Assembly (NCBI RefSeq): GCF_003254705.1 | Contig: NZ_QFYR01000003.1 | Coordinates: 62,001 to 126,000 of the forward strand | Direction: 5' to 3' | Length of the DNA: 64,000 bases | Source of the DNA: Phenylobacterium deserti | GTDB lineage: Bacteria; Pseudomonadota; Alphaproteobacteria; Caulobacterales; Caulobacteraceae | In this document: in pieces, positions 6,426 to 31,901 of the stretch | Layout: each line of letters opens with the position of its first letter | Numbering within the stretch: position 1 is the stretch's first letter | The notes under the pieces: model-generated | Told to the model about the DNA's origin: nothing | What the model saw: only the letters and a program-made list of their open reading frames with translations | The model's database searches: none | Translations under genes and position numbers: made by a program

Positions 6426-6734
6426 ATGCTCGCGCGTATCTACCGCCCGTCCAAGACCGCCATGCAGTCCGGCAAGGCCAAGACCCGCGACTGGGTCCTG
6501 GATTTCGAACCCAAGGCGGCGCGTCGTCCGGACCCTCTGATGGGCTGGACGCATACGAGCGACACCGAATCGAGCCAGGTGCGCCTGACCTTCGACACCA
6601 AGGAAGACGCGATCCGCTACGCCGAACAGCACGGGATTGCGTTCCAGCTGATCGACGACAAGCCGCAAAAGCACATCATCAAGGCCTACGCGGACAACTT
6701 CGCCTGGGGCCGCAAGGTGCCCTGGACCCACTGA
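6426..6734 (+). CDS. NDUFS4-like NADH dehydrogenase (complex I) accessory subunit
   Basis: A 102-residue protein of the ETC complex I NDUFS4/NUYM family, an accessory subunit of respiratory complex I shared by alphaproteobacteria and mitochondria. Recognisable segments are the N-terminal RIYRPSKTAMQSG, the central DPLMGWT, and the C-terminal NFAWGRKVPWTH. The ATG at 6426 has GAGG nine bases upstream and gives the usual MLARIYRP start; a GTG at 6405 is in frame but too close to the tRNA end. It is located, as a single gene, between two tRNAs and away from any nuo operon. Confidence 0.9.
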   Translation: MLARIYRPSKTAMQSGKAKTRDWVLDFEPKAARRPDPLMGWTHTSDTESSQVRLTFDTKEDAIRYAEQHGIAFQLIDDKPQKHIIKAYADNFAWGRKVPWTH

Positions 6735-6744
6735 CCCCTGACGG

Positions 6745-6821
6745 GCGCCCTTAGCTCAGTTGGATAGAGCATCCGCCTTCTAAGCGGACGGTCGCAGGTT
6801 CGAATCCTGCAGGGCGCGCCA
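6745..6821 (+). tRNA. tRNA-Arg (TCT anticodon)
   Basis: The cloverleaf has acceptor stem GCGCCCT/AGGGCGC, D-arm TAGCTCAGTTGGATAGAGC, anticodon stem TCCGC/GCGGA with TCT at positions 34-36, T-arm GCAGG-TTCGAAT-CCTGC, discriminator G and encoded CCA. Length is 77 bases. Confidence 0.96.
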
Positions 6822-6965
6822 GGTGGGGGTTGGTGTCGTGGACCCTCGTCGCACTCCTCGAACGCGCGCGCACCATCGAGACCCGGTGAGGGGCGACGGA
6901 CACACCGCATGTCGCGTCTTCGGCATGGCTGCCCCGCGACGTCTTAGAAACGCATGCGAGATCTC

Positions 6966-6990
6966 GGAACCACCGTCAGGAGCGCCGGTT
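6966..6990 (+). promoter_or_regulatory. EcfG-type (general stress sigma factor) promoter candidate
   Basis: GGAAC at 6966-6970 is followed after 17 bases by GTT at 6988-6990 (context CCGGTTAG). This matches the GGAAC-N16/17-cGTT pattern of alphaproteobacterial EcfG/SigT promoters. The predicted start near 6997 leaves a leader of about 48 bases before the lipoprotein gene at 7045. The same pattern, with the same spacing, precedes 7449 and the lipoprotein on the minus strand at 31,756. Confidence 0.55.
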
Positions 6991-25220: not shown

Positions 25221-25741
25221 GCGGCGCTGCGGGCGGCGCGCGCTTCCTTCAGGAGACGCGTGGCCCGCAGGGCGATCTCCAGCCGATGGGTGCAGACCAC
25301 CCCCACGGCGAACAGCAGGAACCCGTCGGAGATTTCCGCGAGGCTGACGTGCAGGCTGGCGGCGTTGTCTGCCAGGGCGCCGCGAAGCAGCGCGCGGATC
25401 GCGAACACCGCGAGGATCAGCAGCAATCCGAGCGGCGAGGTTCGGCTCGTCAGGGCGTGCGTTTCGGCGTCGACGGTGATGTGCGTAAAGCGTCCGCGCC
25501 ACCAGCCGAGCGCCGAGCCTGCGATGAACGCCAGGCTCCAGGCGGTGAAGGTGACGAACCCGGGCGAAGGCGTGTGGGTGATCGCCAGCGCGGCGGCCAG
25601 CAGGATCAGCACCGGACCGACCCACAGCCGCTCTACCCGCAGGCGCCGGGACCGGGCGTTCCGCAGGAGGGCCAGGGCGATGATGACCAGTGGGATCAGG
25701 TAGGGCCAAGGCCCCGCGGCCGAACCGTAGGTCTGGTCCAT
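25217..25741 (-). CDS. CcdC-like (DUF1453) integral membrane protein
   Basis: A 174-residue protein with four to five hydrophobic segments (about residues 13-24, 40-55, 63-78, 100-113 and 134-150). The pattern and the RNARSRRLRVERLWVGP loop after the first segment suggest the CcdC/DUF1453 family, whose role is not established. Its start shares a base with the stop of the PopA-like gene upstream (TGATG), so the two are translationally coupled. Its stop overlaps the end of mfd. Confidence 0.65.
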   Translation of the reverse strand: MDQTYGSAAGPWPYLIPLVIIALALLRNARSRRLRVERLWVGPVLILLAAALAITHTPSPGFVTFTAWSLAFIAGSALGWWRGRFTHITVDAETHALTSRTSPLGLLLILAVFAIRALLRGALADNAASLHVSLAEISDGFLLFAVGVVCTHRLEIALRATRLLKEARAARSAA

Positions 25742-27078
25742 CAGCTGGCCTTCTTCCTCTGCGCCTCCGAAGCGGCGGCTTCCAGCGCGCGGCCCGCCGC
25801 CTCCGCGGAAGGCACTTCCGCCACGCCGATGTCGAACTCCACAACGAAGGGTGTCTTGCCTTCGCCGGCGTCGAACGCCGTGCAGCCGATCACCGCCGCG
25901 ATCCGCTCGCCGGCCGCGCGGGCGGCGCCCACGGGCGTGGCAGGCAGGGCGAGGGCGAACACTTCCGGACCCAAGCGTGCGGCGGTGTCTTCCACTCGCA
26001 CCAGACGCCCGATCATCGATCCGATCTGCGGGATCGCTCGGTCGAGCCATCCGCCGGCCCGCGCCGCCGTCACCGCCGGACGTTCCGAGACCTTGAGGAC
26101 GCACACGGACAGCGGCCGATTGCGGACGCGGGAAGCCTGGGCCAGCCGCGCCAGATGCAACGCGAAGAGATCCCGTGTGAAGAGGCCGGTGGCCGCGTCC
26201 ATCAGGCCCGAACTGCGCGCCTTCTCCAGCGCCTGGCGCACGGCGCTCTGGCGGCGGAAGTTGCGGGCCAGCTCCAGAACCCGGCCGGCCGTCTCGGTCT
26301 CCGGCACGTCCAGCGACGCCACGTCCGACACGCCCCGGTTATAGGCTTCCGCCGTCGTCACGTAGGAGCCCTGCGCCATGTAGAGCAGCGCAGGCGTATG
26401 GTAGAGGCGCGTGTTGCGCCGCAGGCCGGATGCGATCGACAGCGCTTCCTGCGGGTTCTCGCCAGCCCACAGCACAACGGCGTCGAACGTCCGCTCGTGC
26501 AGGTAGTCGAAAGCGGTGTAGGCGGTGAAGGCGCCCACCACCTCGGCGCCATTCCGCGCCAGAGCGTTGGAGAAGGCCAGGAACTGGGGCGCGGGCTCGC
26601 CGATCGCCAGAACGCGCAGCGGGCTGGTGTCCGCCTCCGGCAGATCGAGTCGGCGACCGCGATCCGCGAAGGTCTCAAGCCGAAGTTCGAACTCTTCCTC
26701 GGAGACGGCGAGACGAACCAGGCTTTCCAGCCGCATCACCGCCTGGGACGGATGCAGCGGCGGCGCCATCGTCAGATCGAAGTCCTGCGCACCGGCGGAG
26801 GCGTCGGGCTGGCCGATCGCGACCACAGGCAGACGACGCGGCGCGCAGGCTTCCTTCAGCCGGCGCGCTAGAGCGGCCATCTCCTCGCCGCCCGACAGGT
26901 CGACGATAGCCGCTTCGATCCCAAGGTCCGCAAGAGCCGCCATAGCGGCGTAGGGGCCGCGCGCCGTCACGGTGCGCCAGCCGAGCCGGTCGAGCCCTTC
27001 GGCGAGCGGACCCGCGAGGACGTCGTCGCGCGCAACGATCAAGACCCGCGCCTGGACGCCTGCCGCCATCAACCCCAT
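25741..27078 (-). CDS. popA: PopA-like REC-REC-degenerate GGDEF protein (c-di-GMP receptor)
   Basis: A 445-residue protein built like Caulobacter PleD and PopA: REC1 (about residues 8-130), REC2 (about 150-270) and a C-terminal GGDEF domain (about 290-440). REC1 keeps ARDD and an aspartate in IVDLSG, while REC2 has lost the phospho-acceptor (VVLWAGEN). The cyclase signature is degenerate: GPEVF at residues 370-374 instead of GGDEF/GGEEF. The inhibitory I-site RxxD is intact as RVED at 361-364, exactly five residues upstream. An inactive cyclase with a working I-site is what defines PopA, which in Caulobacter recruits CtrA for ClpXP degradation. The assignment to PopA is inferred from architecture and motifs. 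Confidence 0.78.
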   Translation of the reverse strand: MGLMAAGVQARVLIVARDDVLAGPLAEGLDRLGWRTVTARGPYAAMAALADLGIEAAIVDLSGGEEMAALARRLKEACAPRRLPVVAIGQPDASAGAQDFDLTMAPPLHPSQAVMRLESLVRLAVSEEEFELRLETFADRGRRLDLPEADTSPLRVLAIGEPAPQFLAFSNALARNGAEVVGAFTAYTAFDYLHERTFDAVVLWAGENPQEALSIASGLRRNTRLYHTPALLYMAQGSYVTTAEAYNRGVSDVASLDVPETETAGRVLELARNFRRQSAVRQALEKARSSGLMDAATGLFTRDLFALHLARLAQASRVRNRPLSVCVLKVSERPAVTAARAGGWLDRAIPQIGSMIGRLVRVEDTAARLGPEVFALALPATPVGAARAAGERIAAVIGCTAFDAGEGKTPFVVEFDIGVAEVPSAEAAGRALEAAASEAQRKKAS

Positions 27079-27193: not shown

Positions 27194-28363
27194 TCAGCGA
27201 TCCTGTTCGAAGAGCGGGAAGGCGGATGCGGGGATCTCCACCGTATGCAGGCCATTGGTGATCCACGCGGACTGCATGCCGGTGTCCTCCGCAAAGCGGC
27301 TGTTGAATTGGGCGTCAGGCAGACTGGGCGCCAGCGGGCCGTTCAAGGCCGGGCGGCCCGGATGGAACGCATGGTTATGTAACCCGGCCAACACCTCCCA
27401 ACCTTCTTTGCGGGCGGCAATCACTGGGTCGGTCAGCGGGTCCATCCGGCCGATGCCGTCCTGGTTCACCGTATAGGCGTAGATCCGCAGCTGGCCCTTG
27501 TCCGGCGAGCGGAGGATGAACGCCGCGAATTCCGTCGGGGCGGTGAAGGTGTCGATGCGCTCGTGCTGAGAGAGCTGCAGCAGCTTCTGAAGGCAGCGGG
27601 CGGGGCGGATCCACTCGACCGCCGAGGCCGCGACCCTGGCGTTGTTCGCCCTGTGCTGCGCATCACCGCCCGCTTCCGCCAGGCGGCGCAGAGGGTCAGG
27701 GTCATCCACGTGGCGCGCCACGGCCGCCCGGAACGCCTGGTATCCGTCAGGATCGGCTTGCGACCAGAGCACTGGCGTGTCGGGGACCTCCCAAACCTGA
27801 AGCCATCGGCTGCCCGGCTGGTGTGGATCTCCCTCCTCGAGCAGGACCATAGGCGGGCGGCTGAAGGCGCAACGCTCCGAAGGTCTCGCCAGGAGTTCCG
27901 CCGACAGCTGCGCAACCGCAGGCCCAGCTTCGTAGCCAGCCGGCTGCTTCACGATGCGAGCGAAAATGGGATCGGCGGCGGCGGCGCTGCAAAGCTCGCC
28001 CTGGCTGGCGAGCAGCGCCGCGAGCGCGGCAGAAGACTCGGCCTGCGCCTGCGCCAACCGGCGGGGCAGGGCGTCTGCATGCCGCTGGACGGCTTTGTCG
28101 AACCCCCGCTCGGCCGTGGCGAAGTACATGCCGCTGCGGACGGCTTCGCGCTTGAAGCCGCTGTCGAACAGCGGCTCTGGATGAGGCTCGACCTGGAAAC
28201 CCAAGCGCGCGCAGAATGGGGTCTCGACCGCGTAGCGAGCCAGTTGATCCAACCGCGCAGCTTGGGCCGCGGTCTGCGCCTGAGCGGCTCCGGACACGGC
28301 TGCCGCCAAGGCTGCAAGGCCGCTCAGGACAGCCATGACTTTCCTGAAAGCCTTGTTCAGCAT
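27194..28363 (-). CDS. Exported protein with a JAMM-like metalloprotease motif
   Basis: A 389-residue protein. The start at 28363 gives a signal peptide (MLNKAFRK then a hydrophobic run ending SGAAQA near residue 30); a longer frame upstream is Arg-rich and unlikely. Residues 30-250 match no family known to me. The C-terminal 120 residues contain HNH at 329-331 and S-L-P-D at 347-350, i.e. H-x-H...S-x-x-D, with Glu278 about 50 residues upstream. That is the metal-binding pattern of JAB/JAMM (MPN+) isopeptidases, although the His-to-Ser spacing (15) is longer than usual. It might be a periplasmic peptidase. The function is inferred only from this motif. Confidence 0.6.
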   Translation of the reverse strand: MLNKAFRKVMAVLSGLAALAAAVSGAAQAQTAAQAARLDQLARYAVETPFCARLGFQVEPHPEPLFDSGFKREAVRSGMYFATAERGFDKAVQRHADALPRRLAQAQAESSAALAALLASQGELCSAAAADPIFARIVKQPAGYEAGPAVAQLSAELLARPSERCAFSRPPMVLLEEGDPHQPGSRWLQVWEVPDTPVLWSQADPDGYQAFRAAVARHVDDPDPLRRLAEAGGDAQHRANNARVAASAVEWIRPARCLQKLLQLSQHERIDTFTAPTEFAAFILRSPDKGQLRIYAYTVNQDGIGRMDPLTDPVIAARKEGWEVLAGLHNHAFHPGRPALNGPLAPSLPDAQFNSRFAEDTGMQSAWITNGLHTVEIPASAFPLFEQDR

Positions 28364-31315: not shown

Positions 31316-31756
31316 TTAGCCGCCCGCGCCACCGCCCGCGCCGCCAGCTCCGCCCGAGGTGCCTGCGCCGCCGGTCGTGCCGGTCGCGCCCGTAGAGCCG
31401 GTGGTGCCAGTCGTGCCGGTGGTCCCCGTCGAGCCCGTGGTTCCGGTCGTACCGCCCGTGCCCATGGTGCCGGTGGAGCCGCCGGTGCCGGCCGCGCCGG
31501 TGCCGGACATGTCGCCGGTGGTGCCGGTCGCGCCCGTGGAGCCCATGGTGCCGGCCGCGCCGGTGCCCGTGGCGTCAGCGCCGGTGCCGGTCATGGCGCC
31601 GCCCGCGGTGCCCGTGGTGTCGGTCGCCGCGCCCGTGGTGGCCGCGGTGTCGGTGGCGGTCGTGTCAGCGCCGCGGTTGCAGGCGACGAGCAGGCTGGAT
31701 GCAGCCAGGGCGGATGCGCTGACGAGCAGCGCAGAGCGCCAGGTCTTGGTGATCAT
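31316..31756 (-). CDS. Gly/Thr-repeat lipoprotein
   Basis: A 146-residue lipoprotein. The signal sequence ends in LLVAC (Cys near residue 25), and the rest is almost only Gly, Thr, Ala, Ser and Met, built of imperfect repeats such as [11 protein letters not shown], ending in a Gly-rich tail. It should be an extended, disordered envelope protein. The start at 31756 has GGGAGA upstream. An EcfG-like promoter (31814-31838) precedes it, with the same spacing as at 6966. The opposite strand has an open frame of Val-Pro repeats, which is only a mirror of the repeats. Confidence 0.8.
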
Positions 31757-31813
31757 GAAGGTCTCCCTCGAGGTCTGTCTTCGCGCCTGCGTTGCGTCAG
31801 GCGTCGGATCGCT

Positions 31814-31838
31814 AACCGGTGCGGGAGATCGCGGTTCC
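31814..31838 (-). promoter_or_regulatory. EcfG-type promoter candidate
   Basis: On the minus strand GGAAC (31838-31834) is followed after 17 bases by GTT (31816-31814), in the context CCGGTTAG. It shares both the spacing and the eight bases CCGGTTAG with the site at 6966-6990. The predicted start near 31808 gives a leader of about 50 bases. Confidence 0.6.
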
Positions 31839-31901
31839 GAAAATGTGATCGGCTGAAACAGAGCAGCCGCCAGACCGATCAAAGGATCGGATTTCGGCCG
31901 C

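What the first reader, a model, noticed from the sequence alone, without database searches (positions are those of the whole stretch)
27194..28363. Exported protein with a JAMM-like metal site
His329-x-His331 and Ser347-x-x-Asp350, with Glu278 about 50 residues before, copy the order of the JAB/JAMM zinc-protease signature at the end of an otherwise unknown exported protein. JAMM proteases are mostly cytoplasmic (deubiquitinase-like); an exported one would be unusual. The spacing between the His pair and Ser is longer than the classic motif.
Basis: partly seen in the sequence, partly recalled or inferred. Interest (0 to 1): 0.52.

Follow-up and report, generated by a model that had tools for sequence, protein, structure and literature searches.

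The report
Exported JAMM-like zinc enzyme family
A rare bacterial protein that is sent out of the cytoplasm carries what looks like the zinc-binding active site of enzymes normally found inside cells, where they cut off ubiquitin-like tags, so it may be a tag-free cell-envelope version of that enzyme class.

Summary
The 389-aa gene (27194-28363, minus) has Glu278, His329-x-His331 and Ser347-x-x-Asp350 behind a Sec signal. Six homologues (50-60% identical) from two genera of one order keep E, H, H, S and D in 7 of 7. Glu278 is the only invariant Glu of 12, and all seven N-termini look exported. Each domain has exactly two cysteines, both conserved. The His-to-Ser gap is always 15 residues, against 7 in 45 of 45 Prok-JAB and RadC domains.

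Fold evidence is suggestive, not decisive. Two low-confidence AlphaFold models (pLDDT 53.5, 51.7) both rank the JAMM protein RadC first in Foldseek, with E-values of only 0.06-0.1. Profile alignment puts HxH...SxxD on the JAMM motif, modestly above shuffles. No Pfam, NCBIfam or PDB sequence model recognises it.

Best reading: a divergent exported JAMM-type zinc hydrolase of the cell envelope, fused here to a second exported domain. No gene neighbourhood recurs beyond one pair, and no ubiquitin-like partner was seen nearby; the substrate is unknown. Secreted JAB toxin domains are a published precedent, so this is a new variant of a known kind.

The parts
27194..28363 (-). 389-aa CDS, exported two-domain protein
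28277..28363 (-). Sec signal peptide, residues 1-29, cleavage predicted after AQA
   Evidence: sequence and hydrophobicity scan; no dedicated signal-peptide program was run
27872..28276 (-). N-terminal, probably helical domain, residues 30-164; related to separate exported proteins in the same bacterial family; Cys51 and Cys125 conserved
   Evidence: helical nature judged by eye
27197..27871 (-). JAMM-like domain, residues 165-389
27530..27532 (-). Glu278, proposed general acid-base
   Evidence: only invariant Glu of 12, 7 of 7 homologues
27371..27379 (-). His329-Asn-His331, proposed metal ligands
   Evidence: invariant H-x-H, middle residue N in 5 and T in 2 of 7
27362..27364 (-). His334, extra invariant His in the longer loop
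27314..27325 (-). Ser347-Leu-Pro-Asp350, proposed oxyanion Ser and third metal ligand
   Evidence: invariant S and D in 7 of 7
27869..27871 (-). Cys165, probable disulfide with Cys257
   Evidence: the only two Cys of the domain, both invariant in 7 of 7
27593..27595 (-). Cys257, probable disulfide with Cys165

Best explanation
The protein is exported by Sec and probably stays in the periplasm; Hyphomonadaceae relatives are lipoproteins held at a membrane. Its C-terminal domain is a divergent JAMM-type zinc hydrolase. His329, His331 and Asp350 would hold one zinc, Glu278 on the second core strand would activate the water, and Ser347 would steady the transition state. A fixed 15-residue loop with an extra invariant His334 shapes the pocket, and a Cys165-Cys257 disulfide steadies the domain. 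The most likely reaction is cleavage of an amide (peptide or isopeptide) bond in an envelope protein or in peptidoglycan, without a ubiquitin-like partner. Shown: sequence, conservation, export-like N-termini, cysteine pairs, lack of a shared gene neighbourhood beyond one pair. Supported but not shown: JAMM fold. Inferred: zinc, catalysis, substrate.
For: E, H, H, S, D invariant 7/7, E278 the only invariant Glu. Spacings E-51-H and H-15-S fixed in 7/7. Model 1 has the AfJAMM order: strand 22-30, long helix 71-103, strand 114-121 starting at the Glu, strand 127-135, strand 159-166 ending at HxH, helix 187-197 just after SxxD, two more strands (AfJAMM from PMC300881, part 1 of section 5 read). 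RadC 2qlc heads Foldseek for both models. VIA-align rows for model 1 include RadC (Z 6.3, rmsd 3.6, 112 aligned), PfJAMM1 (Z 5.5, 3.9, 106) and AMSH (Z 5.2, 4.2, 117). hhalign puts HNH...PSxPD on the JAMM motif; 5 of 300 (Prok-JAB) and 10 of 300 (RadC) column shuffles reach the score, against 181 of 300 for cytidine deaminase. Asn in place of Ser between the ligands is described for distant JAMMs (PMC300881, passages) and seen in 30 of 30 RadC here. Export: 3 lipoboxes and 4 Sec-like signals.
Against: No sequence-profile hit: Pfam, NCBIfam, PDB. Spacing is 15, not the canonical 7. Models are poor (mean pLDDT 53.5 and 51.7), no Foldseek E-value is below 0.05, every VIA Z is under 8, and for model 2 RadC is only row 38 (Z 4.6) while unrelated chains lead. 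Cytidine deaminases tie with JAMMs for model 1 (same general fold). Model 2 does not form the last two strands. No activity or metal data exist, and no neighbour suggests a substrate.
Confidence: 0.62

Rival explanations
1. A JAMM-fold enzyme that is not an amidase: an exported nuclease or other hydrolase, as was suggested for RadC-clade and toxin JABs.
For: RadC is the nearest structure in Foldseek for both models and shares the HNH triplet. Zhang et al. 2012 argue that divergent JABs without the ubiquitin-tail tunnel may be nucleases (PMC3482391, section 26 read).
Against: No DNA-linked domain or recurring neighbour; a periplasmic nuclease role is unsupported. That proposal was itself a prediction from sequence.
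Confidence: 0.15
2. A toxin or effector tip domain of the Tox-JAB kind used against other bacteria.
For: Exported JAB domains with E, H[ST]H, S, D are known in polymorphic toxins (PMC3482391, passages); distribution is patchy.
Against: No repeats or delivery domain, and no recurring small partner gene noticed in the loci read; all seven carry their own N-terminal signal and three are lipoproteins; no PF14220 hit in the 7 members.
Confidence: 0.06
3. A deaminase-like or other alpha/beta fold in which the invariant residues are structural or bind metal without hydrolysis (inactive MPN-like scaffold).
For: Cytidine deaminases tie with JAMMs in VIA-align for model 1; models are poor.
Against: No zinc-binding Cys set; the deaminase profile scores no better than shuffles (181 of 300). 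Inactive MPN domains usually lose the motif (recalled), whereas it is invariant here.
Confidence: 0.1
4. Chance resemblance within an unrelated conserved exported domain.
For: Motif alone arises in 168 of 20,000 shuffles; profile statistics are modest.
Against: Invariance of all five residues and the topology match.
Confidence: 0.07

Closest known systems
RadC family (PF04002), structure 2qlc
   Same: Top Foldseek match of both models; HNH triplet and S-x-x-D; core topology
   Different: No signal peptide described (recalled as cytoplasmic); 7-residue spacing in 30 of 30; no exported N-terminal part
Prok-JAB (PF14464) / JAMM peptidases such as AfJAMM, PfJAMM1 (MEROPS M67, recalled)
   Same: E, HxH, S, D order; E on second strand, HxH at the end of a strand, SxxD at helix start
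   Different: 7-residue spacing and HSH in 15 of 15; no Pfam hit; AfJAMM disulfide (C74-C95) lies elsewhere
Tox-JAB-1 and Tox-JAB-2 (DUF4329, PF14220)
   Same: Exported JAB domains with E, HxH, S, D (PMC3482391)
   Different: Described as toxin domains of large modular proteins; no PF14220 match to the 7 members; direct profile comparison not made

Membership tests
JAB/JAMM superfamily | Glu, H-x-H, Ser and Asp in order and invariant | tested here: met
   7 of 7 homologues
JAB/JAMM superfamily | Canonical spacing EXnHS/THX7SXXD (PMC300881) | tested here: not met
   X15 in 7 of 7; middle residue N in 5, T in 2
JAB/JAMM superfamily | JAMM fold | tested here: inconclusive
   RadC first in Foldseek for both low-confidence models, best E 0.056 and 0.11; VIA Z 6.3 and 4.6
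JAB/JAMM superfamily | Match to a curated Pfam profile (PF01398, PF14464, PF04002, PF14220 or any other) | tested here: not met
   0 families for 7 members at E up to 10
JAB/JAMM superfamily | Bound zinc and metal-dependent hydrolysis | not testable with these tools
   needs protein
Prok-JAB (PF14464) | Profile score over cut-off and X7 spacing | tested here: not met
RadC (PF04002) | Profile score over cut-off and X7 spacing | tested here: not met
Tox-JAB-2 / DUF4329 (PF14220) | Profile match | tested here: not met
   no match in 7 members at E up to 10
Tox-JAB-2 / DUF4329 (PF14220) | Toxin architecture with immunity partner | tested here: inconclusive
   no such context noticed in the loci of the window and 6 relatives; neighbours called by a GC3 rule and only a few of them scanned
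Exported protein | Signal peptide or lipobox in all members | tested here: met
   3 lipoboxes (LAGC) and 4 hydrophobic Sec-like N-termini by a simple scan; start of L014 uncertain

The most novel reading that the evidence does not exclude
This is a separate exported branch of the JAMM metallopeptidases that works in the bacterial envelope with no ubiquitin-like protein, cutting isopeptide links such as peptidoglycan cross-bridges or protein-to-wall bonds, with His334 as a further catalytic or second-metal residue.
Probability: 0.15. Interest if true: 0.75.

Novelty: new variant of a known kind. Interest (0 to 1): 0.45.

Why it matters
JAMM enzymes are known for cutting ubiquitin-like tags inside cells. 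A small, exported branch with the catalytic residues intact and a likely disulfide would show what the fold does where no such tags are expected, and would give a compact test case for substrate searches in the bacterial envelope.

Tried and rejected
Pfam, NCBIfam, PHROGs and PADLOC scans gave nothing usable. Stray weak rows: NNH6 E 0.096 for the full protein; and, each in 1 of 7 members, phrog_3537 E 0.044, phrog_28032 E 0.25 and phrog_1386 E 0.26, VapC E 0.16 and PADLOC C3a222 E 0.0047, function unknown. PDB sequence searches gave no match.

The first genome-contig scan with the full protein found nothing. The second, with a two-row alignment, found only the Hyphomonadaceae MAG JAUYPV01 (L008), the same protein as that of G331. 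Two viral-contig scans, two plasmid scans and one phage scan were empty.

The class-level hit G752 was dropped: it lies opposite to ribosomal-protein genes and contains two stops (genes named by eye).

The first hhalign run was in the wrong mode and is not used. The rerun and shuffle test are used. In building the profiles, 1 of 16 Prok-JAB loci (of the 26 PF14464 loci held) and 2 of 30 deaminase loci did not match my extraction pattern and were left out; the weaker PF14464 loci L037-L050, some of which are RadC genes, were not used. The spacing count therefore covers 15 and 30 sequences chosen by a motif pattern that allowed other spacings.

DUF4329 was sought in 25 genomes plus 14 controls with no hit anywhere, which says nothing. 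The viral fold library gave no clear JAMM match in the top 50 rows. Paper searches for a periplasmic, secreted or lipoprotein JAMM in bacteria listed no description of this family that I could see from titles and abstract starts. PMC10550928 was opened because it holds 'jamm', but the word there is 'jammed/jamming'. PMC1779556 was read in passages only.

Full report
What is there. The minus-strand gene 27194-28363 encodes 389 aa. A hydrophobic Sec-like signal ends in AQA before residue 30. Residues 30-164 form a first domain whose relatives occur as separate exported proteins in three other genomes of the same family (E 4.5e-6, 1.8e-5 and 6.5e-5; 4 of 149 genomes including its own). They share Cys51 and Cys125, and Pfam does not know them. 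The whole protein has four cysteines, two in each domain (read).

Homologues. Searching with the second domain gave 2 of 299 genomes at order level, one of them its own. The two-row profile gave 3 of 105 genomes in the family of the Hyphomonadaceae relative, all in one genus. The full protein gave 4 of 101 genomes in the window's genus, its own included. The 7-row profile gave 4 of 398 at order level and 1 of 398, its own, at phylum level. The class-level search gave 2 of 385, of which one is its own genome and the other, G752, was dropped as spurious. These samples overlap. The family is therefore rare and patchy and was seen in only two genera.

Conservation. In the seven-row alignment Glu278, His329, His331, Ser347 and Asp350 are invariant, and so are His334, Cys165 and Cys257. 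The alignment has 64 invariant columns among 216 ungapped ones. Of the window row's residues, 1 of 12 Glu, 4 of 8 His and 2 of 2 Cys are invariant. Pairwise identity runs from 47 to 64%. The distance from Glu to the first His is 51 in all seven and the His-to-Ser gap is 15 in all seven, while 15 of 15 Prok-JAB and 30 of 30 RadC domains extracted here have 7. The residue inside HxH is Asn in five and Thr in two; Ambroggio et al. state that Ser is replaced by Thr or Asn in distant JAMM relatives (PMC300881, passages; part 1 of section 5).

Export. Three members end their leader in LAGC, a lipobox; four have a Sec-type hydrophobic leader. The start codon of L014 is unclear. In six of the seven the mature protein is essentially the JAMM-like domain alone; only the window's copy has the extra N-terminal domain.

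Fold. With only two sequences allowed in the alignment, AlphaFold gave mean pLDDT 53.5 (pTM 0.55) for the window domain and 51.7 (pTM 0.53) with L008 as query. The second model agrees up to the helix after SxxD but does not form the last two strands. AfJAMM is described with a long helix between strands 1 and 2, Glu on strand 2, both His on strand 4 and Asp on the helix between strands 4 and 5. Foldseek against the PDB puts RadC 2qlc chains at ranks 1-4 (best E 0.056, probability 0.80) for model 1 and at ranks 1-5 (best E 0.11) for model 2. VIA-align gives RadC Z 6.3 for model 1, with cytidine deaminases, EMC subunits and PfJAMM1 within 1, and AMSH at 5.2. For model 2 RadC is row 38 at Z 4.6 and DcrB leads at Z 5.9. 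All these Z values are below 8, so the fold is suggested, not proved.

Profile comparison. hhalign aligned HNH...APSxPD of the family with HSHP...PSxxD of Prok-JAB and HNHP...PSxxD of RadC, opening an 8-residue gap. Column-shuffled templates reached the score in 5 of 300 and 10 of 300 cases, and in 181 of 300 for cytidine deaminase.

Context. In the window the gene lies between a GGDEF-domain gene downstream on the same strand and a divergent BrkB-family gene. Elsewhere the neighbours are RNase HII and MutL (L008), SMC and a thioredoxin-fold protein (L019), Mrp-type ATPase and isochorismatase (L020), a cytidylyltransferase (L016, with valyl-tRNA synthetase a little further on), and SfsA and an M24 peptidase (L017; L018 has the same arrangement) (RNase HII, MutL and the L018 genes named by eye). 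Only L017 and L018 share a setting. I saw no ubiquitin-like, E1-like or immunity gene in the neighbours scanned; most neighbours were not scanned.

Mechanism. By analogy to AfJAMM (H67, H69, D80 as ligands, E22 as acid-base, S77 for the intermediate), H329, H331 and D350 would bind zinc, E278 would activate water, and S347 would stabilise the intermediate. Substrate and reaction are inference; an amide bond in the envelope is the default because characterised JAMMs cut such bonds. The nuclease alternative proposed for divergent JABs (PMC3482391, section 26) remains open.

Known or new. Zhang et al. 2012 wrote that previously identified prokaryotic JABs were intracellular, then reported exported toxin JABs and secreted viral versions. 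The present family differs in its fixed 15-residue loop with an extra His, its stand-alone or lipoprotein form, and lack of an evident toxin context. It fails the canonical spacing and all curated profiles, so I call it JAMM-like, probably a divergent branch of the superfamily, and file it in no named family.

Noticed in passing
25741-27078 (-): GGDEF-domain gene (PF00990, 42.6 bits) just downstream on the same strand; the signature site appears to read LGPEVF, so the domain may be catalytically dead (signature recalled).
   Followed up: partly
L002, L003, L004: Separate exported proteins of the same bacterial family share the window protein's N-terminal domain and its Cys pair; no Pfam family.
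   Followed up: partly
L017:4413-6980: Two SfsA-like starts and a separate SfsA C-terminal piece lie in a row with small genes between, as if one sfsA had been split by an insertion carrying another (only 6504-6977 tested by Pfam).
   Followed up: no
L010:2083-3569 (-): Two thioredoxin/DsbA-like lipoproteins in a row beside the JAMM-like gene, in one genome only (only the first tested by Pfam).
   Followed up: no
31316-31882 (-): Lipoprotein-like ORF with a long Gly/Thr/Ala low-complexity tail.
   Followed up: no
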